Assembly (NCBI GenBank): GCA_012976225.1
Contig: JAAVVG010000009.1
Location: 62,001-126,000, forward strand
From: Golubevia sp. BC0850
Lineage: Eukaryota; Basidiomycota; Exobasidiomycetes; Golubeviales; Golubeviaceae
Length of the DNA: 64,000 bases
Direction: 5' to 3'
Position numbers and translations under genes: made by a program. Positions within the stretch are counted from its first letter, which is position 1, and every line of letters starts with the position of its first letter. The notes under the pieces were generated by a model that was not told the DNA's origin, did not search any database, and worked only from the letters and a program-made list of their open reading frames with translations. Positions 19,919 to 61,427 of the stretch are shown here, piece after piece.

Positions 19919-22645
19919 ATGTCGCGAGATGCGAGAAGAACTGCTTTTGCCTCTCGCTATGTCCCTTTCCTTCCTCCTTCCCTCCAGATCAACCCTTTCA
20001 TGATTCTAAGCCATTCAAATGTGGCTCATTTGACAAGACAATTATCACAAGCTTCCACTAAATCGACGCTTCGAAGGAGGGACTCAAGAGTCTTCAATCT
20101 TCCAATCTGCTCCTTCTCTACTGCTACCCCCCTTCCATTGTTCAGCGAAGCTCGAAATCGAGGCAGGACTTCTTCTAATCACAACAAGCTCAATGCTTCC
20201 AAGAAGGTAGAAGATAAGGATTATGAGGAGGAACTCTCAAAGAGAGAACTGAAAAGAGATGAGGAGAAAGCCAAGAGAAAGGCTGCTTACTTTAGGAACT
20301 CGAAGGTGAGTGAAGATAAGAGATGATCTTAGGCACTGAGAGAGCTGGTGGCCAAAAATTAGAGGCAAATGAAGAGACAGGGCAGGGCAGACAGAGATGC
20401 TGAAGGTTCAAAGAGGGCTTGAGGCACCTCAAGCTGGCTTTCTTTCAAGCAGTTGAGTGCTTCGCTTCTATCCAAGGCAGAGTCATTGAAATCAACCCGA
20501 TTGTGGGAAGGAACATTCATCTTCGAGTCAAGACCAGCTCGGTGTTTCTCGAAGGAGAAGAAGTTGAAGCTCTCGCCACTTTCTTCCACCTGCCGTCATT
20601 GTCTCTAGGAACTCACCCCTCTTCTCCTATCTAGACCGCTTCTGATGTCAAGGTTCCATAACTGGGCTCTGCTTGCCGAGCTTCCTCCTTCGCATCTCTC
20701 TAACAGACCCGTTCCTATCTCTCCATCTCTCTCCCAGGCTCCCCTCTTCGTAGACTCTCTTCTCTTACTCCTACGAGCCGGTTCAGGAGGAGATGGGTGC
20801 TCATCCTTCGCTCGAGCAAAGTACATTCCCTATGGACCCGCTTCAGGAGGTCACGGAGGAAAAGGAGGTGACATCTACATCAAAGCAGTCAATGGTTTAA
20901 GTTCACTTTCCAAACTTGGTTCTGGTGGAATTGGAAGCACAAGCGCCTCTAGTTCTATTTCCACAAGTGGTATGGGAACTTCAGGAACCATCAAATCAGA
21001 AACTGGAAGTGGTGGAACAGGAAGTTTCAGAGATGGTAAAAAAGGAAAGGATAGGATTATAGAAGTTCCAGTCGGAACGATCGTTAGAGTTTATAAAGCT
21101 CAAATCTGGGATTGGAATCAAGAAGAATGGGAGGAAAATATTATGAGGAAGGAGTATGAAGATGACTTGATTGCGAAGTTGAAGAATTCGAGGAAAGAAG
21201 AGGTCGTTGAGGATGAAAATGACGAGAATGATGAGGAAGAGGAAGAAAGTTATGGGGATGAGAAAGTTAAAGCAGAAGAATTGGATGAAGAGTTAGATGA
21301 AGAAGCTGCTAAGTTAAGAAATCAGAGAGACTTAGTTTGGAGACATTATCCTAGAGGTGGACCTTCGGCTGAAGAACAAGAAGCGGAAGATAGCTATAGA
21401 AGAAATGAATTCAGGATTGCTGAGGAGAGATTAGGATTGGCTTTAAGAAGAGAGAGAAGAGAAGAACAGAATAAGATCAAGGAATTGTATAAAGAGAGGA
21501 AAAGGTCGGCAAATGAAATGGGAAGTAGCGGGAATGAATGGAACAGAGAGCTGGAACACAAGGATCAGAATGATGGATTTTGGCTTAGCGAAGAGGAAGA
21601 AGGAAAATCGACTTTGGATCAACAGATGGAAGAAATCGAAACTCAAGAAGTCGAAACACCTGAAGAGCCACTATTCACCATCGACTTCAACACGCCAACT
21701 CCGTCAACTTCTTCCGGTCATCTACTTCTCTCTGGAGGCTCCGGAGGATATGGAAATCCTTACTTCTTGACCTCTCTCAATCGGTCTCCCAAATTCGCTA
21801 CTAAAGGACAAAGAGGAGGTCTTCTACGGATCCATCTGGAACTCAAAGTTCCAGCTGACGTTGGATTCGTTGGTTTACCGAATGTCGGGAAGAGCTCTTT
21901 ACTTCAATCGATGAGTGGTGCCGACGAGAAAGGAGCCAAGACTGGTAACTTCAATTTCACTACTCTGAACCCTAACGTTGGAGTTGTTAGATTCGATGAG
22001 AAGGAGAGGTTGAAGGGAACTGGCAAGGGTAGAATCGGCGGAAGAGTCGAAAGAGAGAAAGAAATGGAATTTGAAAGGAATAGAATTAAAGGTGAAAATG
22101 AAAATGAAAGCTCAACGTCGACGATAGAAGAAGGAACAGAAACCTCAAGACTGACTCTGTTGGATCTACCAGGTTTATTACCAGGAGCATCAAAAGACGT
22201 TGGTTTAGGTCATTCTTTCTTAAGACATGCAGAACGCTGTCCACTTTTGATTTACGTTGTTGATGTTTCTTCCTCAAATCCTGAACCTTGGAAAGATGTT
22301 CAGGTTCTTAAGGATGAATTGGAAGAATACAAGTCCGGTTTAAGTAAGAGAGCTATGATCGTAGTTGCTAACAAAGCTGATGCTTTAGGTCCGAGTTTAG
22401 GATTGGAGGAGAAATGGTTGAGAGAGAATGGGAAGACTAAAGAAGACCTGGGTGGAGGTGCAGAAGAGGAGGCGAAGAGATTAAGTCAGAAAGAAGCAAA
22501 GGAGAAGATGGAAATTCTGAAGAGGAAAGTTGAGGAAATTCATGGGAAAGAATTGTTGGTGGTTCCGGTTTCTGCTATGTGGAGATTGGGAGTGGAGAAT
22601 CTGGCTAGGAAGTTAAAGGACTTGGTAAAAGTTCAACAAGTTTGA
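19919..22645 (+). CDS. MTG2: mitochondrial Obg-family GTPase, ribosome assembly
   Basis: Mtg2 helps mature the mitochondrial large ribosomal subunit at the inner membrane. The main exon, ending at 22645, has the Obg glycine-rich start FVDSLLLLLRAGSGGDG and GGHGGKGGDIYIKA. It then has the GTPase motifs: G1 GLPNVGKSS (about 21872), G3 DLPGLLPGA (about 22163), G4 NKAD (about 22370) and a final VPVSAM. A first exon 19919-20305 codes an Arg-rich, acid-poor N-terminus that fits a mitochondrial presequence. One in-phase join is 19919-20305, 20609-20652, 20707-22645 (789 residues), but the small middle exon is provisional; an acceptor at 20731-20734 is an alternative. The Obg fold is split by a large acidic, Glu-rich insert (about 21060-21700). 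The upstream ATG at 19883 is also in frame. Confidence 0.88.
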
Positions 22646-35118: not shown

Positions 35119-36448
35119 ATGACTTCAATGAACCCAATCTGGTCGAGACTCATCCGTTTCACAGCGAACGAAGATTCTGGTACGATCCCTCATTATGGTG
35201 AACCAATCGATTCAGCTTTGGACGTAGGTCAAGCTTTTCTAAAAGGTCAAAAGATCCAGGTCAAATTATTGAATGGTGATCCTTTCGATTCTCGTTCTAA
35301 CTTCTCTGGAGTCGAACTGACTGTGAAGAAACTCCTTTCTCCTTTGGATAGGACTCAAGTTGGAACCATTAGAGCTCTGGGGGCGAACTACGTCCAGCCC
35401 AATCAGAACGAAGTTGAGGCAAAGAAGAACAGACCTAAAATCCCTATCCTTTTGTGAGTATCTCAGATCCAGACTTATCAAATCCCCACTATTCTCATGT
35501 TCTCTAGGATCTCAAGAGGAGTCCTAAGAGAAGTAGAGAAGCATTGAAGCAGTGACTCATTGAGTCTCGTCGAACCCCGTCAGAGTAGAGGTCCCCGACT
35601 GAATTCCTCCCTCTCTTCATGATTCTTATTCAGCTACAAACCTCTGACTACTCTAGCGAACCCTCAAGATCCAATCTACATTCCGGAGATCGCCCAACAG
35701 GGAGGAGATCAATCTGATTATGAGGTCGAGTTGGTGAGCATCCCTTCGTTGTCTTCCACTCATTCGCAAGGCTTTTCAACCTGTCCAGAACAAGTTCCAG
35801 CTTCTGAGTGTCCAATTTTTTCTCTCTTCTTACTATCACTACAGGTCGTCATCTTGTCTCAAAACTGTCGAAACATCTCCGAATCAGAAGCTCCTTCCCA
35901 CATTCTAGGCTACTCCCTCTCAAATGACGTATCTGCACGTAGAGACATGTTCGCAGTACCTCAATGGGGTTTAGGGAAATCTTTTGACAACTGGTTCCCA
36001 ATGGGTCCATGTATCGTCTCTCCTAAGATGCTTGGAGATCCAGAAAACGTTCAACTAAGGACAGTATTAAATGGGAAGGAGATGCAAAATGACAGCACTA
36101 AAAAACATCTATGGAAGATTTACGAAACGATCTCTAGGTTGAGTCAGGGAACGACTCTGGAAAGAGGGAGTGTGATCAGCATGTGAGTTGTGAGAGAGAA
36201 AAGAGTGGAGGTTTTTGATTGTCACTTGTCACCTTCTGACCTCCTATTTTGACCTGCTTCCTTCATTATTATTTTTCTTCTCTTTCTTCTCTCTCAGGGG
36301 AACTCCACCTTTTGAGGGATTCAAACGTGATCCTCAAGTCTTCTTAAAAGACGGAGACGTCGTAGAGTGTTCAGGTAGCAATGGACTTGGAACTTTGATC
36401 AACCACGTCGTTGAAGAAGGGAAAAATGGAAGGAAGTCTAAGCTTTAG
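35119..36448 (+). CDS. fumarylacetoacetase-family hydrolase
   Basis: Exons 35119-35453, 35634-35733, 35845-36182 and 36298-36448 join to 307 residues, the size of FAHD1/FAHD2-type proteins rather than full fumarylacetoacetase. The fold binds a divalent metal and cleaves or decarboxylates beta-keto acids such as fumarylpyruvate, acylpyruvates or oxaloacetate. Conserved pieces: RALGANYVQPNQNE, YEVELVVVILSQNCRNI, LGYSLSNDVSARRDMF, GKSFDNWFPMGPCIV, and GTPPFEGFKRDPQVFLKDGD near the end. Metal-binding acids are expected in YEVEL and NDVSAR. The normal 'GKS.D...PMGP' segment is intact. The gene shares a short promoter with ECM4. Exact substrate not known. Confidence 0.93.
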
Positions 36449-37610: not shown

Positions 37611-38102
37611 ATGTCTAAAAGTGAGTCACTTGAAAGCTCACACAAGAGAGAGAGCACTGTGAACTGACGACTTCGAACCCACTCTCCTGCAGCCGAAGAA
37701 ACTCTCTCAAAAATTCGAAAGCGCCTAGAAGAGGCTCTGGAGGAGGTCGAAAAGCTTCAACCTGAAATGACAAAGTCTCTTTCCAACGAGAATCAGAAAG
37801 GCGGAGATCCAGCTAAGAACGAGCCATCCAAAACAAAAGAGACCTCAGTCCTTCTTCGGACCATCTCGCTAGTTCTGCTCTCTCTACTCTTCCTTCCAGG
37901 TTTTATGACCCTCTGGGCTACATTCAGTGCGGGACCTCACGATGCTCGCTATCATCCAATCGCAGCTTGGATGCCAGGATTCGAGGGAGGTGGAATGGGC
38001 ATGACAACTTGGTTCTTTTTGGGATTCCTTTCCTTCATAGCAATTCTGTTTGGGTCCACAAGTGCAGTTCTGGCTTTAATAATGACAGCTTTTGACAATT
38101 AA
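37611..38102 (+). CDS. small two-span membrane protein, tandem paralogue 2
   Basis: Exons 37611-37620 and 37693-38102 join to 139 residues. The N-terminal part, KIRKRLEEALEEVEKLQPEM, is a clear amphipathic coiled coil. Then come a polar linker and two spans (ISLVLLSLLFLPGFMTLWAT and FFLGFLSFIAILFGSTSAVL), with a Gly-rich loop containing HDARYHPIAAWMPGF between them. It matches the upstream gene in its 10-nt first exon, linker, span order and loop (ARY-HP versus PRWHP), so the two arose by tandem duplication. No signal peptide. The family and function are unknown to me; a small membrane adaptor held by coiled-coil pairing is one possibility. Confidence 0.75.
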
Positions 38103-38788: not shown

Positions 38789-41700
38789 ATGAGTGGCGTT
38801 GTTCAACGCACCCCCACCAAATCTTCCTTCTCTAGAAATGGCAATGAAGAGAATCAAGCTCATCCTCCAACTCCATCTTCAGCTACTTCAAAGTTGACTT
38901 CTCCACCAACCTCCTCATCTTCTTCGTTCAAGAGGCAACGTCTCGCCACCTCGGACCTGAGTGAACTCTCTGATGAAGATTCACCTCCCAAGCCAACGCG
39001 CAACAAAGGTCCTCAAACCACTTCATCCTCAACCTTCTCAAACGTCTCCAAATTCTCTAGACTTCGGATGGATAGTGCCAGGAGCAATCCAACTCAATTC
39101 GGTTCCGATGGTATCATGATGGCGGTGGATGAACAGGACGACGGAGAGGTGGGAGGTCAGCATCGAGGAGGGGGAGGGTTTGGAGATCAGCAAGATCCAG
39201 CAAGAAGAGGGAAAGGGAAAGAGAGAGAAGTTGGGACATTAAACTCTTTTCTAAATGTCAATGGACCGATCTTGAGAGGAAGGTCGTTGACTCCGAATAG
39301 AGTGGAAGGAGGAGGAGGGTTCACCAACTCCTCAGATGAGGAGGAGGATGCTGCCAATGCTTCCATTTCCTTCCCTCTTTTCTCAGACACCCCCAGAAGA
39401 GGGATCAGAGATAGAAGAGCGCCTTCCAGGATCTCTCCCTCCCAATCTTCTAAACCTAACACCTCAATCAAACTCAAGACCGGTCTCCCATCCTCAACTC
39501 GCACCAGAGGCGCAGCGGATCAGACTTCCTTCAGTGATCAAACCAACTCAAACTTCAACACACTTCCCAAGAAATCCTCATCTTCAAATCCTACGTTCCG
39601 ACCCATCTCCAACAAGCCTCTCAGACCGGATCTGGTTCCTGTGGTCGAGATCCCTCCCTGGAGACTTAGAAAGAGGTTCGAAAGAGTCAAGTCCTCACAA
39701 GAACGAGACGACGCAGTTGGTGGAATTGAGAGCTCTTCTGGACATTCAGGAGAAACCAGCGAGAAGGACGAGTGGGCTAAGGCAAGACAACGGAAAGGAA
39801 AGGGGAAAGGAAAGGGGAAAGGAAAGGTCTCCTCTTCAAAGCCAAAGCCAGACTACGTTCCTCTTCCACCACCCAAGCCGCTGGAGGAAATGTCACTCAG
39901 AGAAAAGTACACATTCGAAGCTCAAGCAGAACGTCACAAGCAGGATTTCGATGCAGAGCACAGGGGCTCTGATTCCGATTCTTTCTCCGACCCAAGCAGC
40001 GATGACTTCGAGAACGACAATCTTCTACCCGCTCTCAGCTTTGACGTTCTAGCTTCCATCAAGAAAAAGAAGTTCTCATCTCCAAAGAAGTCAAGCCGCA
40101 AATCATCCTTCCTCAACGGCTCCCAGTCTTCGTCAGGAGACGAAGAATCTTCTCGGATAGCAGGAAGATCCTCTCCTACCTCTGATGACGCCGACAAGGT
40201 CTTGGGAGGTCACTTCAACAGTTGGGGAGCAACAGATTCCACCAGTAGGATCAGGAAGAAACGAGACCTCTTCGATCCAAGTACCGTCTCCAAGACCTCA
40301 ATCAGTGCCCCGAAGAAAGCTATTCGTACCGCTGCCAACTCGGTCCAAAAGAAAACTTCTCAAATCGCCAAGCTTCTAAAAGAGAAGAAAATGATGGAAG
40401 CAAAGGGTCTCGGAGGAGGAATCGCTGATTGGGATCGAATCAGCAAGGAAATCGAAGGACTCGAAGAAGACGTCAGGCTACCAGATCAAGTTGGAAGCGA
40501 TGCGACAGAATCAGAAAACGGAGAACTCAGGGAAGAAGAAAGGGAGGCAATCGTCGGAAATGCAGAAGAGCTGAATCTGTGGGGAAATCTCGATCCAAAT
40601 CGAACAATTCTAACTCTCGCTACCCCTCGACTTGGAGATGGAGACGAATGGGGCTCAGATTCAGAGTCTGATGACAACGATCCGAAATCTGAAGTTCAAG
40701 CTCATCAAGGTTTCAGCAAGAGCGCAACTCCTGCTCTCCTCAAGCTTCACGAGTCTTCTCCTGTCTCTCCTCCTTCTTCCTCACCCGGCAGCGAAGAGCC
40801 GGATAGGATGGATCTGGATGTAGAGAGCGGAGCCGATACCAGTTGGACCGACATCAGTCCTTCTGGAAGAAATCAGCAGCTGAAAGCCAACTCCTCGAGT
40901 CGTCTTCCAATCACTACGGATTCGAACAAGGAGGGAGGAAAGGATCTCTCTCCAGATCGTCGTCTCTCAATTCTCTCCAAATTCCTGGACTCCGAAGCTG
41001 AGTCTCCCACCACCAAAAAGGCTGGAAAGTCTTCTCGCAAAGCTTCGAAACAAGTCGACGATGTTGGTGGCGAAGGAGCAGCAGCAAATTCCAAGAACGA
41101 GAAACAGTTGATGATGGGCATGCTAGCCAAAGGCAAAGAAGATGCTCTCGAATCAAATCAAGACGAAGTTAAGGTTGGAAGTCACTTCTGGGGACGGAAG
41201 AAGACTGAGTACTGGCCATCTCTGGATCTAGAGCTGACTTCTTCGGACGCCGAGGTCTCTAAGCATCAGAAAGCTTTCAAGATCTTGAAGGAAACGCTGG
41301 ATCTCAAGAATGAAGCCAAGCTCGCTGCTCTTCTTGAAGGCGGTATTTTGGAACCAATCCTCAATTCCCTCGATCTCGTCTCTGGAGAAGCCGCTTCCAC
41401 AGCTCAGAATTTGTGCAGGATCTTAACTCTCCTTTCAGATCTCTCAATCCACTCCTGCTCGCAGACTCTATCTCTGCACGCCTCAAAGGTCCTCAAGTCT
41501 TCAATCATTCCAAGACTTGCATCATCGCCCCCAACTTCAGCTGTGGTGAATCAGCTGCGGTCGAGCTTCAGGCTAGACAGAGTCATTGCAGATGCGCTGG
41601 TACGCCTCGGAGCTAGGAAAAGGGCTGTCGCTTCTTGCTTGACAGGAGACGCGCCTCCTGAAGACCTCAACTCGCAGGTGAAGGAAATCAGGAAGCTTCT

Positions 41701-44598
41701 TCCACAGGTCGAGAGCCTGGACGACGACGTTCGAGGGAGGTCAAAGTTCTCTCCCGTTTTCAGAGGATTGAGCGAGAGAAAGAGAAAGCTGAGAAACTTG
41801 CTAGAGGTTGTGGGAATTTTCGTAAAGTGAGTTCAGACCCAATCGAGCTTTGAGCTTCCGCAATCGATGAGACCGACCATTTGTTTCTTTGGTTTTCGTT
41901 CCTTTCCCAGTGGATTCCCCTCTCTGTTGGCCTCTTCTCACAACCTGTTCATGCTAGTGGTCCAAGTTTCCACCTCAATCCGGGACACAAATCAAGCCAG
42001 CTCTGTTCCTCACTCCCTACCGGTTCACACGTCCAACTCTCATTTCGATCTCCTCAACCTCCTCGAAAGAGTCCTCTCTGGACTATTAAGTTCTGAACCG
42101 GAGAGTCGAGATGCGGTTCTCTGCGGCAGACTTCTTAGAATGCTGGAGGAAGGAGGTAACGACGGCAAAGGTTTGAAACTTTCAGCTAAACTCTCGTTGC
42201 TGACTTCTTTGCCTAGCTCTGATAAGAGAGCGAGAGCTATCAATCGATGGATTGCTTGGAGGAGTCTCTTGGGTTCGGTGAACTCGGAGAAAGGAGGGAA
42301 GCAAGTGGGGATGGACATAGATGGAGAAGAATCCCAGAAAGAGAATCTCGATCTTCACGAGGTGAGTAATCAATCGCTTGCCCAACCTTTTGCCAAAGAA
42401 AGCTTTTTCGACTGACACTACTCTCTTGCTTTTGATCACATCTTCTCCAGCTATCGTCTTATTCTTCCCTCGTACCCTCACTTACCTCATTACCGGAGCT
42501 CATTCAGAACGCGAAAGGACCGTTCGCCATTCGACCAAAGACAGACTACCAAGAACTGCTCAGCGCAGCTGTCTTGATTCGGATCATCTTCTCTGATTTG
42601 GCTCTTCAAATCTGTGATCCTAGCGTTCTCGATTCTGTTGGAGCCAAGGATCTTTCGATCCAATCGAATAGCATTCAAGATCGAGTGACCAACGCCAAAC
42701 GTGTCAAGCCTTCAAGACTCGGAGCGGTTCCAAGCGGGTTCTTCATCTGTCTCCAGCCATTCCTTCCACCTGTCACTATTCAATCGACAACATCTTCAAA
42801 CGCTAGAGTGGCTTCGGTTCGAAAGGTGGAACAATGTTTAAGTCTAGTCTACGGAAAGATTCACGATGGAAAGGGAGCTCATCTGAATAGAACTATGGCT
42901 AAGGACACTATGAAGAGAGTTCAGCTGAGCATTAAGTATCAGCTGGATAGTATCACTGTCAATAAAAGGCAAGGTCAAGTGGAAGGAGAGGCAGGGAACA
43001 CTTCAATCGACGACTTCTTCTCAAAGAAGGAGTCTGAAGATGCACCAGCTGATCCGAATCTACAAGGTGATCAGATACAAGGAGTCGGGCAGCAGGAGAA
43101 GAATCAAGACAACTCATCAAGCTCGGGGCAGGACCCAAGTCAAATGGCTTCTTCGTCGACGATGTTCTCGAGGGAGAGCACCGCTGCCTCTCCGACTGGA
43201 ACAACCGCTAGACCTCGTCCTCGTCCTCGTCCTAAGCCGAAAGCTGCCGCCTCTACAATCTTAACTCCCAAGCAGCCTTCTTCCGATGCCTCTTCACAGC
43301 CTCCTACGGAAGCTCAAGTTCAAGCTGCCGATCAGCAGCCCAGTGCTCCACCTCCTGCTCCTGCCACTCGAACAAGTCCAAGGAAAGCTCAGGCAGCGTC
43401 TCGCATCATGTCGATAATCTCTTCTCATCCGACCAAAGCATCTCTGCTAGGATTCTCGTCCTTCGCGTCTGGGTCAAGCGCTACTCCTGCCCGCTCCTCT
43501 TCCAACAGAGCAGGAAGTGCAGAGACTCCCATCGATCTTTCGGAAAGCCCTCCGCTTCCAGTGGCGGCTCCAGAGAGACCCACAGCTCAAACTTCGGAGA
43601 CTCCTAGCAGAGCTTTCAAAGGTAGAGGACTCTCGTCAGCTCCAATCGATCTCTCTTCTCCCGGACCCGATGGGAAGGTCGACTCCTCTGAGGGAGATAG
43701 CAGCGTCATCTTCGTCTCCATGTCGAGCCCGAGGAAAGAGTTTCGCGCTCCTGTCGCCAACTGTCAGGCAAGGACTGCTGGCCACGCTTCTTCGTCAACG
43801 ACGATGGACGTAGACTCTGGAACGTCGAAAGCCAAGCCACCTCCATCGTCGATCCTAGCCAGTCGCAAGAAAGCGATCGATCCCGTGGTCTTCTACAACT
43901 CACCCAAGAAAATAAATCCTCCAGTTGCCTCTGGGCCTCAGCGAAGCTCTCAACCTCAAACAGGCAGAGCTACCTCTACCAACCCTCTCAATTCTTCTCC
44001 CTTCAAGACTGCAAATTCTCCAGTCGTTTCTTCCTCTCGCCAAGTCTCCGAGACTCTGGGACGGAGTCTCACTCCTCCTGCTCGAAAGAAGAACCCTTTC
44101 AGATCAAACTCAATCAAAAATGAGGGTTCAGATCAGGATCGAGATCAAGACCAAGATCAACCTTTGAGCTCTCCTACTCCCGCAGTCCGCTCTAGTGGCG
44201 CCGCTTCCTTCAGCTCGATGAAATCCGGTCCAGTAGGGGCGGCAGCAGCTCGAACTTCCTCCAACAATGGAACGCAGCTGAGTCGACCAAGTAGCTCACA
44301 GTCGAGCAATCGATCCAGCTCTTACCAGTCACCTGCCAAATCTGCCGCCGAAGGCCCCAGCTCTTCTCCGCCCTCTGGATCTTTGACAAGATTGTCTCAA
44401 GGATCTACCAGTTCTCAGAAGGGAGGAGCAGGAGGAGGTCAAGCTCCAAAGCAGCCAGCTACTCCTTCTTCAAGTCAACAGAGGGCGAACTCTGGGACTC
44501 CAGGAAGTGGCTCTCCGGCAGGAGTAACCAAGAAAAAAGGGAAGGACACGCTGGCGAAAGGTCAGAACTCTTTGACGAACTACTTTGGAAAGATGTGA
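38789..44598 (+). CDS. 1878-residue disordered protein with SIM-like and PCNA-binding (PIP-like) motifs
   Basis: Exons 38789-41826, 41911-42361 and 42451-44598 join in phase. The N-terminal about 800 residues are Ser/Pro/Lys-rich and acidic, with many SP/TP sites. A compact part follows, from SHFWGRKKTEYWPSLDLEL (about 41180) to about 42960. It looks all-helical and repeat-like, with LLEGGILEPILNSLDLVSGE, LRRMLEEGG-type helices and LSAAVLIRIIFSDLALQICD. The C-terminal third is disordered and has three hydrophobic, acid-flanked cores like SUMO-interacting motifs (TPIDLSESP, APIDLSSPG, SSVIFVSMSS). It ends with Q-N-S-L-T-N-Y-F-G-K-M, which fits the PCNA-interacting consensus at residues 1868-1875. 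A second, weaker version, NTSIDDFF, is at residues 1346-1353. A nuclear, replication- or repair-linked role is inferred; I do not recognise the family. Confidence 0.8.
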
Positions 44599-44897
44599 GG
44601 TGGAGGGGGAAGAGGAGAAGGGAGGGGGATACTCGGTTTCGCATTCATTGTTTCGGCTTCTTTCAATTTCGAGTTCGCTCCTTGTTATACTATCATTTTC
44701 ATTTCGCTGCCAACTGATTCTTTTGCTTCTTTTCATCTGGTCTTGTGGCAATTCTGACTTGGGATCTTGAGAGGACTTTTGCTTTCGCCGTTTGTTCCCC
44801 GCAGTCCTCTTGTCCTCAATCTCTTTTTCCTTCCTTCTCTGCACCTCTTTCCTCTTCCTTCCAACTCATCCCTTTTCCCAAGGTCTCCAAACCCATC
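44599..44897. other. intergenic
   Basis: About 300 bp between same-strand genes, T/C-rich toward the acetoacetyl-CoA synthetase start as in many fungal promoters. No other feature seen. Confidence 0.4.
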
Positions 44898-53951: not shown

Positions 53952-56487
53952 TCAGAACACCCTTTCAACCATCCCCTTAATCTCCCGTTCATCGTCTATA
54001 AACCCCTTCCAAACTTCATCGACTCCTCTGCATTTGATTTTGATCCAATCCATTTCTTTCAAAATGATAGTCTTGATGTGTTCTCTCCTATTTAAAAGTA
54101 TAGAGATCTGTTTCCTATCACTTTCGATTCCTTGAAGAAGTCTATGAGATTCCGGATCTGAAATCGTATTCGAGGTGTTTGAAAGTTGAGTCAACCTTCG
54201 TTGAGTTAAATCGATTCTCTTTCTTAAAGATTCGATTGAATCAGTGGATAGTTTTTGATGTCTAGAAATTAGGGACTGGAAGGATTGAAGTAGGTCTAGT
54301 TGATACTGAGAGGAGGAAAAAGGAGGGGAAGAGAGAGAGAGAGAGAGAGACAGAGACAGAGAGATGAGAAAGGAGACCTTTAGTAGTCAAGCTTCGAGAT
54401 TCGAAGTCATCATAAAGGAAGATGTTTCAGATCGATTGCATGCAAAGATTCAAGAGATGCTCACCTTCAAACCCTCCAACGTGTTCCCTTCCAACCTCCC
54501 ACCTCTAACCTCCCAAACCCCACCCAATCCTTCACTCAACCCTCCAATCTTCTTATTCCAATTGTCCACTTCAACTTCATCTCTTCCCCACCCTTCTCCC
54601 TTCCCTTCAACTTCTTCCAATCCTCTCAGCCCAAATCCTAACCTCCTAAATTCCCCTCCAAGCTTCTCAACCCCTTCTGCAATTTTCATCAAGCTATCAA
54701 CAACTCCCTTGAATTTCTCGCTAACTCCATCAACACAAAAACTGAATCTCCTAAACTTTTCATCAAAGTCTTGAGGGATCAGCATTTTGTCTTCTGGACT
54801 TAGAATCGCGGATTCTAATAATGATTCCTCTATTTCTGATAGGATTGGATTTGGTTGGATTTCAGCTTGTGAAATTCTCCATTCAGAAAGTAATGATTTT
54901 TCGGTAAAGAAAACTTTCAAAAAGGCATCTTTTTTTAAAACCTCATGATTTTCCAAGATTTCTAAATATCTTATCAAACCTTTTCTTCTTTGTTCATTGA
55001 ATAGCTTTTGATTTTTTAACAAATCATTTTCACCTGTCACAGAGGTGGATAAACTATTCGTTAAAGCTCCTGGGAGATAATCATCCAATCCTCCCAAATT
55101 CAAATTGATCCCAATTCTCTTAGGAGGTAAAGTGGGAACCAACCTAAAAGGATAACGTTTTAACAAAACCTCATGTAAGAAAACGAAATCTGAATATCTA
55201 CGATTAAGAACTTTTGAATTCCGTTTATGAGAGATAAGAGTATAGGTGTTATGTTTGAAGAATGGGATTGAACCTTGTTGTTGAGTTGAGAGAGTTAGAG
55301 TTAAAGAGGGGTTTAGGTGTGAAGTTTGAAGAGTTGTGGATGATGAATTGGAGCTGGTAGATGGAAAAGAAAATTCTTCCGAAATCTTATTTGAAGAAGT
55401 GTGAGGATCTTGAGGATAGAAAGTTGAAGAGGAAATCATGGTGGAGGAAGAAGTTGGAAGACCGTTTGAACCTGATTTTGGTTTTGAAAATTGAGTGGGC
55501 TGGGATTGTGGGGAATTGTTTGGGTTATGAGTACTATTACCCCATGGATCTGTGATGCTTGATTCTGAATTTTTGATGGCTCTGGATCGAGGGAGCGTCG
55601 AGTAATTTGAAGGTTGTGATTGAGGTTGGAGGGAAAGGTTTGGGATTGGTGTTGTTGAAGATGGATTTGAGAGTAGAGATTTTGCTAACGTTAGATTTAA
55701 AGCTATAGATGAAACAGAAAAGAGAAAAAAGGAAATTAATTTCTGATTTGACAGGAGAAAAGGCCTTGAATCTGCGCTCCCCTGCAGAGGGCTTTTGGCT
55801 CTTACCTTGTTGGGTTTCAGCTTGCGATACCAATATAAGAGCTAGATTGAAATCAGTTCTATTGAGTTGAGAACTCGGACTTGTGGAACCGATGATCTGA
55901 TAAAAAGAAGCGGTGGTTGACAAAGTCAATGAGTTCTGTGAGCTTCTGTCCAATTTCTCCAGCATTAGCTGTGGGGTTCCTTCCCAGCTAAGCCAAACTT
56001 GGTTCTGATAGCATACTCTAAAGCTCAAAGGAAGACCTTTCCATTATCCGCTGACATCTGCTTGCGGAGGTTGCCCCTAATCAGCTTCCCCTATCCCACT
56101 TCAACCCCTTCCTCTCCCCTCTCCCTCCGTTTTTACATAGCTACTCACCTCTTGAATCACATCATCATCTAACCCAGATCTCTTTAGTAGCTGCTCCAAC
56201 TGACTCCTCTCAATCTCATGCCCATTCTTTGAGACCATCTCCCACGCAGCGTCATAAATCTGGGGTAGCTTCGACGTCGAGGTTCCATTCAAGGCTGAAT
56301 TTGGAGAATTTGAAGCCCAAGTGGTAGGTCTTGGTTTGATGGAATTGATAGTAGGAGGAGTTGGATCGAAGGAATCGTCGTTTGAGGTGGTGGTGGTAGT
56401 CCAGGGAGATGGATCATCTGCTAATTGAGATAACATTCCTCCGGCTGAGGAGGATGCTAACGATCGAGGTTGATCAAATCGTGACAT
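53952..56487 (-). CDS. MVP1: sorting nexin Mvp1 (SNX8-like), PX-BAR
   Basis: Exons 56487-56149, 55896-55806, 55702-54465 and 54305-53952 give 673 residues. Mvp1 acts at endosomes, where it binds phosphatidylinositol 3-phosphate and drives retrograde membrane carriers. The N-terminus has an EH-like segment, YDAAWEMVSKNGHEIERSQL, then IIGSTSPSSQLNRTDFNLAL. The PX domain follows, with RRYSDFVFLHEVLLKRYP at residues 311 onward and LVPTLPPKR, where the first Arg of RRYSDF and the PPK loop bind the lipid. After it come KGLIRYLEILENHEVL and a long helical C-terminal region, including RHQKLSTDSIESLRKRIDL, that would form the BAR domain. The gene is head-to-head with the FHA gene, 220 bp apart. Confident call. 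Confidence 0.93.
54331..54360. repeat. GA microsatellite in an MVP1 intron
   Basis: Perfect GA units followed by degenerate GACA units, inside the last MVP1 intron (54306-54464). On the sense strand this is a pyrimidine tract next to the acceptor and probably helps splicing. Confidence 0.85.
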
Positions 56488-56707: not shown

Positions 56708-59700
56708 ATGATTTCTTCAATCCGAAGATCTTTGAGTGGAACGTTGGTGAAATCATCATCGCAATCCTCTTCATCTCCTTCAAAGATTCAAACACAACCT
56801 CAAGAGCCAACACCAACACCAACACCAAAATCCTCAATGGTGTACGCCACTCTAATCCTTCAAGATTCTAATGGAAATGTTTTGGAAAGATTCCCTTTGC
56901 TGGATAGAGTCACCGTTTTCGGAAGGTGAGTAAGAGCGTGAGAGGTTGGTGTTGGATGCCAATGGGAATGTTGGATCCAGACAACAGAAGGAACAAGTAG
57001 CATCTAATCGTAATGGCAACTTCGTTTCCTTGTGGTTCAGATCTTCAAAAGCAGACGTTCGAATCGTAACAACATCAGTCTCGAGAATCCAATGCAAAAT
57101 CCATTTCAATCCTGGTGGTTCAGAGGTGAGTTTTATCCATCCACCCTCTCTCCTCTCTTCTGTCACCTAACCATTTACATTCTCAAATATGTTCTATTCT
57201 TTTGAACTCCTTCAGCCAACTCTCGAAATTCTAGGATCCAGAGGAGCTCTCCTCAATTCTATCTACACTCCACCACTTTCCGACACCTGTTCAGGTCTTT
57301 ACCCACTCCACGAATCAGACGTTCTAAGCATCGAAAACAGACATTTCAGATTAAGCTTACCCTGCACGAATTCAAACATTCAGGTGAATCAAGAAGTTGG
57401 AGGAGAAGGTGGAGTGATGATAGACACACCAGCAAAGAATGGTGGTGGTAGGAGAAGGATTAGAATGAGTTTGGTTAGGAATGCAAAGATCGAAACTCCT
57501 TCTAAGCTAATTGAAGGAAGGGGAAAGTGTGCAAGAAGAAGTTCTGTGAAGCCTAGGAACGAGATGGTAGAAGAGGAGGGAGGAGACGTTGAGATGAGGC
57601 AAGTAGAGGAAGAGGCGCAAGAGGATGATGGGGATATGATTATCATGGAGGAATTAGATGATGATGATGAAGAAGAAGAAATCATTAAGGCAGAAGGATT
57701 GGTTGAAGAAGAACCTCAACAACAACAAGAACTTCTAGTCTCAACTCCTTCTCCATCTCCTTCAAAATCTATCGATTCCCCTTCTAAATCCAAATCCAAA
57801 TCTGCATCTGCATCAAAGAAAGCACGTAGATCTTCTGGATTCTTTGGAAGAGCTGGAGTCAAATCTGCCGGTGGAGAAATTAAGAAGATTAATGGAGATT
57901 TCTATGGAGAAGAGATTAATGGTTCAAATTCAAATTCAAATTCATCTCCTTCATCATCTCCTACGAAAGTATTAGGAGAGAATAATTTCAACGATGCTAG
58001 TTCCCCTTCGAAGCAGAAGAAATCATTAAATCCCTTCGGTTCTTGTTCAGATGACGATTTCAAAATTCCAAGACTTCCTTCAAATAATCAAACTCCACCA
58101 GTTTCTCCTTCCAAAAATCAATTCTTACCAACTCCTACTAGGCCACTTCAACATTCTCCATCCAAAAATCGTAGAGTCAGTTTGAGAACTGATTTCCTTG
58201 TTAGGAGAACTGAAGAATTTCAAGAAGAGAGAGAAAGAGAATTGGAAGAAAGGAAAAGATTGGAGGAAGAGATGAATAGAAAGGATAAGGAAGAATGGGA
58301 AGAGAGACAAAGAGCTAGAGAGATGAAAAAAGTTGATGAAGATCAAGATGAGAAACTTATGGAAGGAATGGATATCGATATGGACATCGACGAAGATAAA
58401 GAAGATGAAGATGAAATTGAGAAATCTTTAAGTTTCAGTTTAGGTGAAGATGACGAGAACGGAATGGATTTAGATAACTCTTCTCCGCTTGGAAGTTCTC
58501 CTTTATCTCCTCCTAATAGTTCTCCAGTTCAACATCAAAGTTTCACAGCCTCTTTAGGAGCTTTCTTAACTCCTCAACCCCCAAAACTGAAGATCATCAA
58601 AGGAGGTAGGAAAAGTACTGGAAGAATTAAGAAGATCAGTTTGGGAGGTAGAAAGTCTTCTGGTGACCATTGGATCACAAGTTTCGGAAGAGGAGGAATG
58701 ACTAGAACCAAATCTGCTCCAGATGGTTTGTTAGCTTCTCCTCAAAACAACGGAAACGGTTCGATCTTAGGACAAGACGAAGAAGAGATCCATGGAGATG
58801 GCGAAACCAGTAGAGCTTTAGATGCTCTTTGCGAAGAAGCTGAAGGTCATGAAACTGATGAGGAGGAGATAGAGCAAGACGTTCAAGATCAAGCCCAATT
58901 GACTGAAAGTCCTGAGGAATCCGATTCTTTCTCAATCCCTCCACCACCTTCACCTTCTACTTCTACGATTTTACCAATCTCAACTCCTGGCCCAGCTTCT
59001 AGATCAAGCATTTCGGTCAAAGCTTCAAGTTCTTTAAAGAAAGCTGGTAGAAGATCTTCAACTTCTTTCTATGCTTCCAAAGAAAGTTCAAGTCCTGATA
59101 GAAATTCAAAGAGTGGAATGTTGAAAGATGATGCTTTGGCGGCTTTGAAACATGTTCTTTATTCTAGTGCTGTTGGAAATGAAAACAAGGTCGAAGAACA
59201 ACCTCAAGTAGAAGAGACACGATCCAAAGTAGAAGAAGTAGAAGAAGCTCCAAAATACGGAGGATTGAGGGAAATGATGAGAAACGTTCCAGGATCTCAA
59301 GAATTACTTTCATTGGCTAATAGTCCTAAGAAGAAAGGCCACTCTAAGGGATCAAAAAGTCCAGCAACTCCAGATATGAGAGATCTCAAACATTTCTTGA
59401 AAGAACCCGTCAATCAATCGACTCCATCAATGGAAGGTTTAAGAGATTCATTGAATTTGACTTCTTCTCCTGCTATGCAAGTCGATGTTAACGTGAGACA
59501 ACTTCAAGTTCCTTCTACTCCAATCATTGAATCACATTCTAAACCTAGAAAGTCAGTTAGAGAACAACAATTTGAAACTCCAGATCTAAGTTTCTTGAAG
59601 CACGTTTTCGCTCTACCTCCAAAGGTCGTTGAAGCTGATTCAAATCTAAAGAACGTTAGAGATTTATTTGAAGCTCATAGAGAAGAGTTGACTTCTTTGA

Positions 59701-61427
59701 CTCCTGTTAAAGAGAGACAAGATGATTTGAAGAAACTGTTGAATACTTCTGGAGCTAAAAGGGTCATTATCAAGGCCGCTACTGGAGCTTTGAATGCTGA
59801 AACGGTCAAAGAAAGTCCTATGCCTTCTCCGTCTCTGTCACCTATGCCTTCTCCTTATCCTTCTCAAGCTGAGAACTCTGATTTCAAGACTCCTGAAATC
59901 CCAAAGGCTTTGATCAGTTCCTCTCCAATCAAACCTTCAGTTGAACAAGAAAATTCTCCTCTACCTAAATTGAAGACTTCTGAAGGGAAAGGTAGAGTTT
60001 CTCTAAAACCAAGGAAATCTTTAGGTGAATCTTTGGCTGGTAGACTTGGTAGGACACCTTTGAATCCTCCTCCTTCTCCTCCAGTAGAGGTTTCTGACAA
60101 GGATAAGGTGATGAAGAAGAAGATCTCAAGGAATGCTTTGGATTCAAGTTCAAGTTCTCCTTTCAAAAATACTCCTTCAAAACCCAGGAAATCGTCGAAG
60201 GTTAAGAGCAATGAATCTACTCCTCGAAGCGAATTGAAAGTCGTGGAACATGAACCAGCTCAGAAGGAGTCTTCCTCTTCTCCTTCGAAGAAAGCTTCAA
60301 GACGCAAGAGTAGTAGAAACTCATTGGTTGGAGGAAAGGATTCTGAACTTCCTGTTTCTCAATCTAAGGACGTTCAAGGTCAAGTTGAACCGGAGATTGT
60401 AGTTGAAGAAGTCAAGGAAGCTGAGGTAGAAAGGCAAGTTCAAGATCAAGATTCAGTTTCAGAAGCACCTACTGAAGTCGAAATCGAAGCCGAGAAGAAA
60501 TCTAAGCCAAGTCGTAGACCTAAAAGAGAAGCGGCGTTGATGGCTACTTCTTCAATCGCTGCTCTTTCTTCTTCTCCAGCTCCTTTCGCTACTTCTTCAT
60601 CTCGTTCAAAGAAATCTCAACCTGAAGTCATTATTTTTATTCCATCAAAAGGAAATGGAAAGATGTCTGTCGAAGAAGACGAGGAAGCACAGCAGGAAGC
60701 TTTAGACGAGCCTTCTTCACCAACTCCAAAAGCTAGAACGTCAAGGAAAGCGGCTAAGGCTACTTCATCTTCTCCTTCGAAGAGATCTCAAGTCAAATCA
60801 AGCTCTAGTCGATCAAGGAAGGCTAAGGTTGAAGTTGAAGAGGTAGAAGATGCTCAACCTGAAGAAGAGCTTGGAGAGGAAGTCGAACCAAAGAAGGTTG
60901 CTTCCAAAGGTAGATCGAGATCTAAGTCTTCAAAGAAAGATCAAGAAGTAGAAGAGGAAGAGAACTCTTCGGATCTGGAAAACGAAGCTCAAGCTGTGGA
61001 GGAAGAAGCTACTGCTTCAAGGAAAGGTAGAGCCACTAGATCAAAGTCTTCCACTATCAAGAAGAGAACTGCCACCAAGAAGCAGCTAGAAGAGAATGAA
61101 GATCAAGAAACAGAAATCGAGCCTTCTTCGGAGGTGGCTGAATCAACCACTTCAACTAGGTCTAAACGAAGTCTCAAATCATCCAAATCTAATCCTTCAC
61201 TGTCTTCTTCGGTCTCTAGCAGAGGTACAACATCAAGATCGAAGAAGGTTGAGGAGAAGGCAGAGGAAGAGCAGAACGAGGAAGAAGAAGTGCCTGTAGT
61301 CAAGACGAAAGCTTCAAGTACTAGAACTCGAGCCAAAACTACCAAGTCCAGTGCAGCTGAAGAAGACGTTGATTTGGACGCCCCAGTCGCTACTAGAGCT
61401 ACCAGGAGTAGAGCTGCTAAACGTTGA
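56708..61427 (+). CDS. 1504-residue FHA-domain protein, Ki-67-like
   Basis: Exons 56708-56925, 57041-57125 and 57216-61427 join in frame. The FHA domain spans about residues 46-160: ATLILQDSNGNVLERFPL, V-F-G-R73, DVRIVTTSVSRIQCKIHF, then GALLN and SIENRHFRLSL, with the Gly-Arg, Ser-Arg and His/Asn positions that bind phosphothreonine. Beyond it the protein is very Ser/Lys/Glu-rich, with a coiled-coil block at about 58200-58350 (EEFQEERERELEERKRLEEE) and long acidic tracts. Residues about 738-950 carry repeated short helices: ALKHVLYS, GLREMM, TPDMRDLKHFL (residue 819), TPSMEGLRDSL and TPDLSFLKHVF. These resemble the D-L-x-x-h-K-E-L-F core of Ki-67 repeats. A chromosome-coating or nucleolar role is inferred. 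The C-terminus is Lys/Arg/Ser-rich. Confidence 0.85.

What the first reader, a model, noticed from the sequence alone, without database searches (positions are those of the whole stretch)
38789..44598. Large unrecognised protein combining SUMO-interacting-like cores with a C-terminal PCNA-binding motif
The last 11 residues contain Q-x-x-L-x-x-Y-F, the PIP-box pattern, exactly at the C-terminus, as in several replication and repair factors. A weaker N-x-x-I-x-x-F-F lies at residues 1346-1353. Between them sit three acid-flanked hydrophobic cores (PIDLS twice, VIFVS once) of the kind that bind SUMO. The SIM-plus-PIP combination is known from factors that read SUMO-modified PCNA, such as Srs2 and Elg1, yet I see no helicase or AAA domain here. 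A helical repeat-like core lies in the middle. This could be an undescribed fungal PCNA/SUMO adaptor, and is my best candidate for something new in the window.
Basis: partly seen in the sequence, partly recalled or inferred. Interest (0 to 1): 0.75.

Follow-up and report, generated by a model that had tools for sequence, protein, structure and literature searches.

The report
Unassigned protein with PCNA-docking-type tail
An unfamiliar large gene, probably fungal, ends in a convincing docking peptide for the DNA-replication clamp PCNA, but its SUMO-binding signals are weak, its core matched no known family here, and conservation could not be tested.

Summary
A three-exon gene (38789-41826, 41911-42361, 42451-44598, +) encodes 1,878 aa. 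It ends QNSLTNYFGKM, a canonical PIP box three residues before the stop. NTSIDDFF lies at 1346-1353, PIDLS at 1523 and 1561, VIFVS at 1582.

The C-terminal PIP is unlikely by chance: 5.5e-5 to 1.9e-4 per 16-residue tail. Of 376 stop-to-stop ORFs in the window, only this one has a strict PIP in its last 16 residues. It resembles the C-terminal PIP of a fungal PolD3 crystallised on PCNA (passages).

The SUMO claim is weaker. Only VIFV fits the strict hhXh consensus. PIDLS has two aliphatic residues and also equals the PXDLS CtBP motif. Residues 805-1345 match no Pfam family above its cutoff and no PDB chain convincingly. Single-sequence AlphaFold gives helices but no usable fold.

Best reading: a PCNA client scaffold without a recognised enzyme domain, possibly CDK-regulated. 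Reading of SUMO-PCNA is possible but unproven. Moderate interest.

The parts
38789..41826 (+). exon 1 (residues 1-1012 plus two bases); residues 1-805 Ser-rich and poor in hydrophobics, then start of the helical core
   Evidence: uninterrupted 1,030-codon frame; first ATG of the frame at 38789; composition
41827..41910 (+). intron 1, 84 nt, GTGAGT...TTTCCCAG, contains an in-frame TGA
   Evidence: sequence and frame restoration
41911..42361 (+). exon 2 (helical core, residues 1013-1163)
   Evidence: splice model keeps one frame
42362..42450 (+). intron 2, 89 nt, GTGAGT...CTTCTCCAG
   Evidence: sequence and frame restoration
42451..44598 (+). exon 3 (residues 1164-1878 and TGA): end of helical core, then 533-residue Ser/Pro/Ala-rich tail
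41201..42996 (+). helical core, about residues 805-1345 (both introns inside), no family recognised
   Evidence: Leu-rich block; only helices in single-sequence AlphaFold models, mean pLDDT 42.9 and 36.8; no Pfam match above cutoff, PDB best E 0.31 and none for the last segment
42997..43020 (+). weak PIP-like motif NTSIDDFF (residues 1346-1353), followed by SKK; also fits an FF-type Rev1-binding pattern (pattern recalled; not above chance)
43528..43542 (+). PIDLS, first copy (residues 1523-1527): partial SIM core or PXDLS motif
43642..43656 (+). PIDLS, second copy (residues 1561-1565); 3 of 5 codons differ from copy 1, all synonymously
43705..43719 (+). VIFVS (residues 1582-1586): SIM-like core fitting hhXh, single acidic residues upstream
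   Evidence: consensus
44563..44586 (+). canonical PIP box QNSLTNYF (residues 1868-1875), three residues before the stop, Lys-rich upstream flank
   Evidence: comparison with a fungal PolD3

Best explanation
The gene encodes a scaffold, probably nuclear and without a recognised enzyme domain, that is a client of the PCNA sliding clamp. Proposed working: the extreme C-terminal PIP box docks in the PCNA pocket, and the 533-residue tail acts as a flexible tether. The helical core (about 805-1345) carries or holds the cargo, and NTSIDDFF beside the core may add a second, weaker contact. The SIM-like cores may favour SUMO-modified PCNA or neighbours. CDK-type sites in both flanking regions would tie the protein to the cell cycle. 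Shown here: gene model, motifs, non-random placement of the PIP, lack of a recognised catalytic domain. Inferred: nuclear location, PCNA binding, tether and scaffold roles, CDK control. Most speculative: SUMO reading.
For: Strict PIP three residues before the stop: tail chance 5.5e-5 to 1.9e-4, 1 of 376 ORF tails in the window. Same layout as the C. thermophilum PolD3 C-terminus: its last eleven residues QGSIMSWFAKK and QNSLTNYFGKM here share Q, S, F and K in register (4 of 11), and the F is followed by three residues in both; that peptide binds PCNA canonically, Kd about 43 uM (PMC10787639, passages). Lysine-rich flank KKKGKDTLAKG. [ST]P.[KR] sites: 6 in residues 1-805 (1.8 expected), 0 in the core (0.5) and 7 in the tail (2.0), P 0.0095 and 0.0025 for the two flanks. 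No Pfam match above cutoff, no Walker A, no C..C. Only helices in both low-confidence models.
Against: No orthologue seen, so no conservation. PIP-like peptides can bind proteins other than PCNA (title of Boehm and Washington 2016, seen only as a reference-list entry). The motif was picked by a reader scanning a whole window. SIM evidence is near chance except PIDLS x2. The models are too poor to name a fold. Codon usage supports the frame only weakly: the true frame beats both shifted frames in 13 of 19 blocks of 100 codons; the gene scores -0.07 against 0.06 for the reference set, its GC3 is 0.48 against 0.36, and the last 41 codons score -0.14, no better than intron 1 (-0.13). The two PIP peptides matched no PDB chain, though such short queries rarely do.
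Confidence: 0.5

Rival explanations
1. The motifs are partly coincidental. The protein is a large nuclear or chromatin protein whose tail peptides serve other partners, for example PXDLS peptides for a CtBP-like dehydrogenase or FF-type peptides for Rev1.
For: PIDLS matches PXDLS exactly (motif in PMC6303947, passage); the tail is long and Ser/Pro-rich, which makes short motifs cheap; the loose PIP pattern occurs 68 times in the window's 376 ORFs.
Against: The C-terminal strict PIP is the only one among 376 ORF tails. The passages seen place CtBP in vertebrates and arthropods, with a plant sister clade. The FF pattern for Rev1, as I recalled it, is not above chance (1 in the tail, 0.17 expected, P 0.15), and the Mlh1-type pattern as recalled is absent.
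Confidence: 0.2
2. The core is a diverged member of a known replication, repair or cohesion family with a helical domain (WAPL, Mms22/Mus7, Sld3, Rif1 or similar), too far from the profiles to be recognised.
For: Large disordered flanks, CDK-site enrichment and a helical core are common in such factors (recalled).
Against: No such Pfam family was listed up to E = 10 for the exon 1 protein, the exon 3 protein, the spliced core or four overlapping core pieces (HMMER's filters drop most matches above about 0.1). The best of four weak hits is EAD8, E = 0.013, 16.6 bits against a cutoff of 27.
Confidence: 0.15
3. It is a fungal Smc5/6-loader subunit of the Nse5/Nse6 (SIMC1/SLF1/SLF2) type: the helical solenoid pairs with a partner and brings Smc5/6 to SUMO- and PCNA-marked forks.
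For: Human precedent for the same parts on helical proteins without an enzyme domain: SIMC1 has tandem SIMs in a disordered arm, SLF2 is drawn with a PCNA-interacting APIM, and standard searches failed to find SIMC1's relatives in yeast (PMC9708086, passages). The core (about 540 residues) is of the size of the regions given there (SIMC1 468-858, SLF2 635-1173).
Against: No convincing sequence match in the PDB up to E = 10, which should include yeast Nse5/6 (entry 7SDE is named; its presence in the searched copy was not checked). No APIM here. In SIMC1 the SIM-bearing arm is N-terminal; here the SIM-like cores and the PIP lie C-terminal to the core. The model is too poor to compare folds. A review of Nse5/6 (PMC13167486, word search) has no mention of PCNA or PIP.
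Confidence: 0.1

Closest known systems
PolD3 / Pol32 / Cdc27 C-terminal PIP (Chaetomium thermophilum PolD3)
   Same: Canonical PIP at the extreme C-terminus, three residues from the end; there, as described for human p66 in the same paper, after a long flexible region.
   Different: C. thermophilum PolD3 is 451 aa, this protein 1,878 aa; no Pfam family, PolD3 included, matched above cutoff.
Srs2 C-terminus (PIP plus SIM)
   Same: PIP-type and SIM-type motifs in the C-terminal part.
   Different: Srs2 is a helicase with an atypical PIP (Qxxh, no FF) and both motifs inside residues 1107-1174 (passages). Here the PIP is complete, the SIM-like cores lie 282-345 residues before it, and no helicase was recognised.
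Elg1 (ATAD5)
   Same: Three SIM-type cores and a PIP in one protein (passage).
   Different: Elg1 resembles the large RFC subunit and its SIMs are N-terminal; no AAA or RFC match here.
SIMC1 / SLF2 (Nse5/6-like)
   Same: Helical proteins with disordered arms bearing SIMs (SIMC1) or a PCNA motif (SLF2) (passages).
   Different: Motifs split between two proteins; APIM rather than PIP; arm on the other side; no sequence relation detected.

Membership tests
PIP-box PCNA-binding proteins | Q-x-x-h-x-x-a-a motif in a flexible region | tested here: met
   QNSLTNYF at 1868-1875, Ser/Pro-rich tail; flexibility inferred from composition
PIP-box PCNA-binding proteins | motif conserved in orthologues | not testable with these tools
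   no fungal collection; viral and prokaryotic scans confirmed no relative
PIP-box PCNA-binding proteins | physical binding to PCNA | not testable with these tools
   needs an experiment
SIM-containing SUMO readers | hhXh or hXhh aliphatic core, often beside acidic or phospho-Ser residues | tested here: inconclusive
   1 of 3 cores (VIFV) fits; PIDLS does not strictly; acidic-pair pattern 0 found (consensus)
Srs2/PARI family | UvrD-type helicase domain | tested here: not met
   no Pfam match above cutoff, no Walker A
Elg1/ATAD5 | RFC/AAA domain | tested here: not met
   no Pfam match above cutoff, no Walker A
SUMO-targeted ubiquitin ligases | multiple SIMs plus RING | tested here: not met
   no C..C found, no Pfam match above cutoff
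Nse5/Nse6/SLF2/SIMC1 | Nse5- or Nse6-like helical solenoid | tested here: inconclusive
   helical only; pLDDT 42.9; Foldseek 0 of 103 matches at E <= 0.001
PolD3/Pol32 | N-terminal PolD3 domain | tested here: not met
   exon 1 protein, 1,013 aa: 0 Pfam families up to E = 10

The most novel reading that the evidence does not exclude
An undescribed fungal protein family: an adaptor without an enzyme domain that reads SUMO-modified PCNA by a C-terminal PIP plus a cluster of three SIM-like cores, and recruits a helical-core cargo such as Smc5/6 to replication forks.
Probability: 0.14. Interest if true: 0.7.

Novelty: new member of a known kind. Interest (0 to 1): 0.38.

Why it matters
If the PIP is functional, a whole unassigned protein joins the PCNA clients. 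If the SUMO part also holds, SUMO-PCNA reading would exist without a helicase or clamp-unloader, which would bear on what fungi use beside Srs2 and Elg1. The claim is cheap to test: one peptide, one clamp, one orthologue alignment.

Tried and rejected
Rejected: that the C-terminal PIP depends on a doubtful exon end. A donor-like GTGAGG overlaps the stop (44595-44600); were it used, the PIP octamer (44563-44586) would still be in the protein, only no longer terminal.

Rejected: that the two PIDLS are a recent DNA duplication; 3 of 5 codons differ synonymously and the flanks differ.

Rejected as chance: EAD8 E = 0.013 (16.6 bits, cutoff 27), Sec63 Brl E = 0.12, I-HmuI NUMOD-like E = 0.57, CCDC138 coiled coil E = 0.19; five PDB hits with E 0.31-1.3; Foldseek matches, best E 0.91 (50 of 103 shown).

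Led nowhere: PDB search with the two PIP peptides (none) and with the last core segment (none); structure of the exon 3 core (pLDDT 36.8; no fold search was made with it); literature searches for a described protein of this kind. No title among the papers listed describes one, but the lists were cut at 10, 8, 8 and 8 of 20, 99, 144 and 17 papers, and text search cannot find a protein by its sequence. Species and phylum were not identified.
Full report
What is there. Exons 38789-41826, 41911-42361 and 42451-44598 on the + strand join through two short introns (84 and 89 nt, GTGAGT donors, CAG acceptors) into an open frame of 1,878 codons and a TGA. Three parts are visible from composition: residues 1-805, 16% Ser and poor in hydrophobics; about 806-1345, 15% Leu; and 1346-1878, 21% Ser and 12% Pro. 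Codon usage is a weak support: the frame beats both shifted frames in 13 of 19 blocks of 100 codons, but the gene differs from the reference genes of the window (score -0.07 against 0.06, GC3 0.48 against 0.36) and its last 41 codons score no better than intron 1. The case for the gene rests on the two long open frames and the frame-restoring introns.

The PIP box. QNSLTNYF sits at 1868-1875 and is followed only by GKM. A canonical PIP in a random 16-residue tail has probability 1.9e-4, 5.5e-5 or 7e-5 depending on the composition used. As a control for selection, 376 stop-to-stop ORFs of at least 60 aa in the window were scanned: 2 strict PIPs in 41,764 residues, and 1 ORF with a strict PIP in its last 16 residues, this one. 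The closest described parallel found is the C-terminus of Chaetomium thermophilum PolD3, GKGGQGSIMSWFAKK, crystallised on PCNA in canonical mode with a Kd of 43 uM (PMC10787639, passages). Both end three residues after the last Phe of the motif. The weaker NTSIDDFF at 1346-1353 lacks Gln; a passage in PMC10127746 says that some PCNA binders such as Rad30 have hxxFF without Q, so it may act, but the loose pattern is common (68 hits in the 376 ORFs).

The SUMO-interacting cores. PMC8616421 (passages) gives the core as hXhh or hhXh with aliphatic h, often with acidic or phospho-Ser flanks. VIFV fits. PIDL does not strictly: it has two aliphatic residues (a looser consensus allowing Pro at the first place is recalled, not from a call). 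In the tail, hhXh occurs once against 0.34 expected (P 0.29), hXhh not at all against 0.36, and a looser second type twice against 0.29 (P 0.027); in the whole protein a similar loose type occurs twice against 0.84 (P 0.20), and hhXh near an acidic pair occurs nowhere (0.87 expected). PIDL[ST] twice is never reached in 2,000 within-segment shuffles, but the pattern was chosen after the fact. The two copies differ by synonymous changes in 3 of 5 codons with unlike flanks, which speaks for a kept peptide rather than a recent duplication. PIDLS also equals PXDLS, the CtBP-binding consensus (PMC6303947, passages); those passages place CtBP in vertebrates and arthropods, so this reading is not favoured in a fungus, nor excluded.

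Other regulation. Full CDK-type sites [ST]P.[KR] number 13 against 4.3 expected, 6 and 7 in the two flanking regions and none in the core; P 0.0095 and 0.0025 with shuffles inside each segment. No APIM motif and no excess of SQ/TQ sites (16 against 18.5 expected) were found.

The core. No Pfam family was listed for the exon 1 protein, the exon 3 protein or the spliced core, and four core pieces gave four hits below their cutoffs. PDB sequences gave five hits, best E 0.31, for the core and none for its last segment. AlphaFold without an alignment gives only helices, with mean pLDDT 42.9 for residues 805-1163 (28 intron residues included) and 36.8 for 1164-1345. Self-comparison shows no internal repeat above shuffles. 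So 'helical' has weak support and 'repeat' is not shown.

Relatives. No genome is held for the window. Scans of viral contigs with the core, the exon 1 protein and the exon 3 protein, and of prokaryotic contigs with the exon 1-2 core, matched 3, 3, 25 and 39 stretches by short patterns and confirmed none as a relative. These collections are not expected to hold fungi, so this says little. Conservation, which would decide the matter, is untested.

Mechanism. I take it as a PCNA client scaffold: the tail docks by its C-terminal PIP, the helical core carries the function, CDK sites in the arms regulate it, and SUMO may add selectivity. Motifs and their placement are shown; binding, location and regulation are inferred. 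The nearest mechanistic precedents are PolD3 for the tail and SIMC1/SLF2 for helical proteins with SIM and PCNA motifs (PMC9708086, passages). Defining domains of the Srs2, Elg1, STUbL and PolD3 families were tested and not met; membership in the Nse5/6 type is open, with no positive sequence evidence.

Surroundings. On the 5' side lie an unassigned ORF (37668-38102; one Pfam hit below cutoff) and a fumarylacetoacetate-hydrolase family ORF (35623-36186); on the 3' side lies an AMP-binding enzyme (45274 onward). None points to a function for this gene.

Noticed in passing
20609-22645 +: An Obg-type GTPase ORF (GTP1_OBG and MMR_HSR1) whose G domain starts only at residue 417 of the ORF, with a long, visibly acidic stretch before it.
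   Followed up: no
57171-61427 +: A 1,418-codon open frame, visibly rich in Lys, Glu and Ser, with no Pfam match up to E = 0.01.
   Followed up: no
44595-44600 +: A splice-donor-like GTGAGG overlaps the stop codon of the gene; if used it would extend the tail past the PIP box.
   Followed up: partly
54450-55841 -: A PX-domain ORF (E = 1.3e-14), sorting-nexin-like.
   Followed up: no
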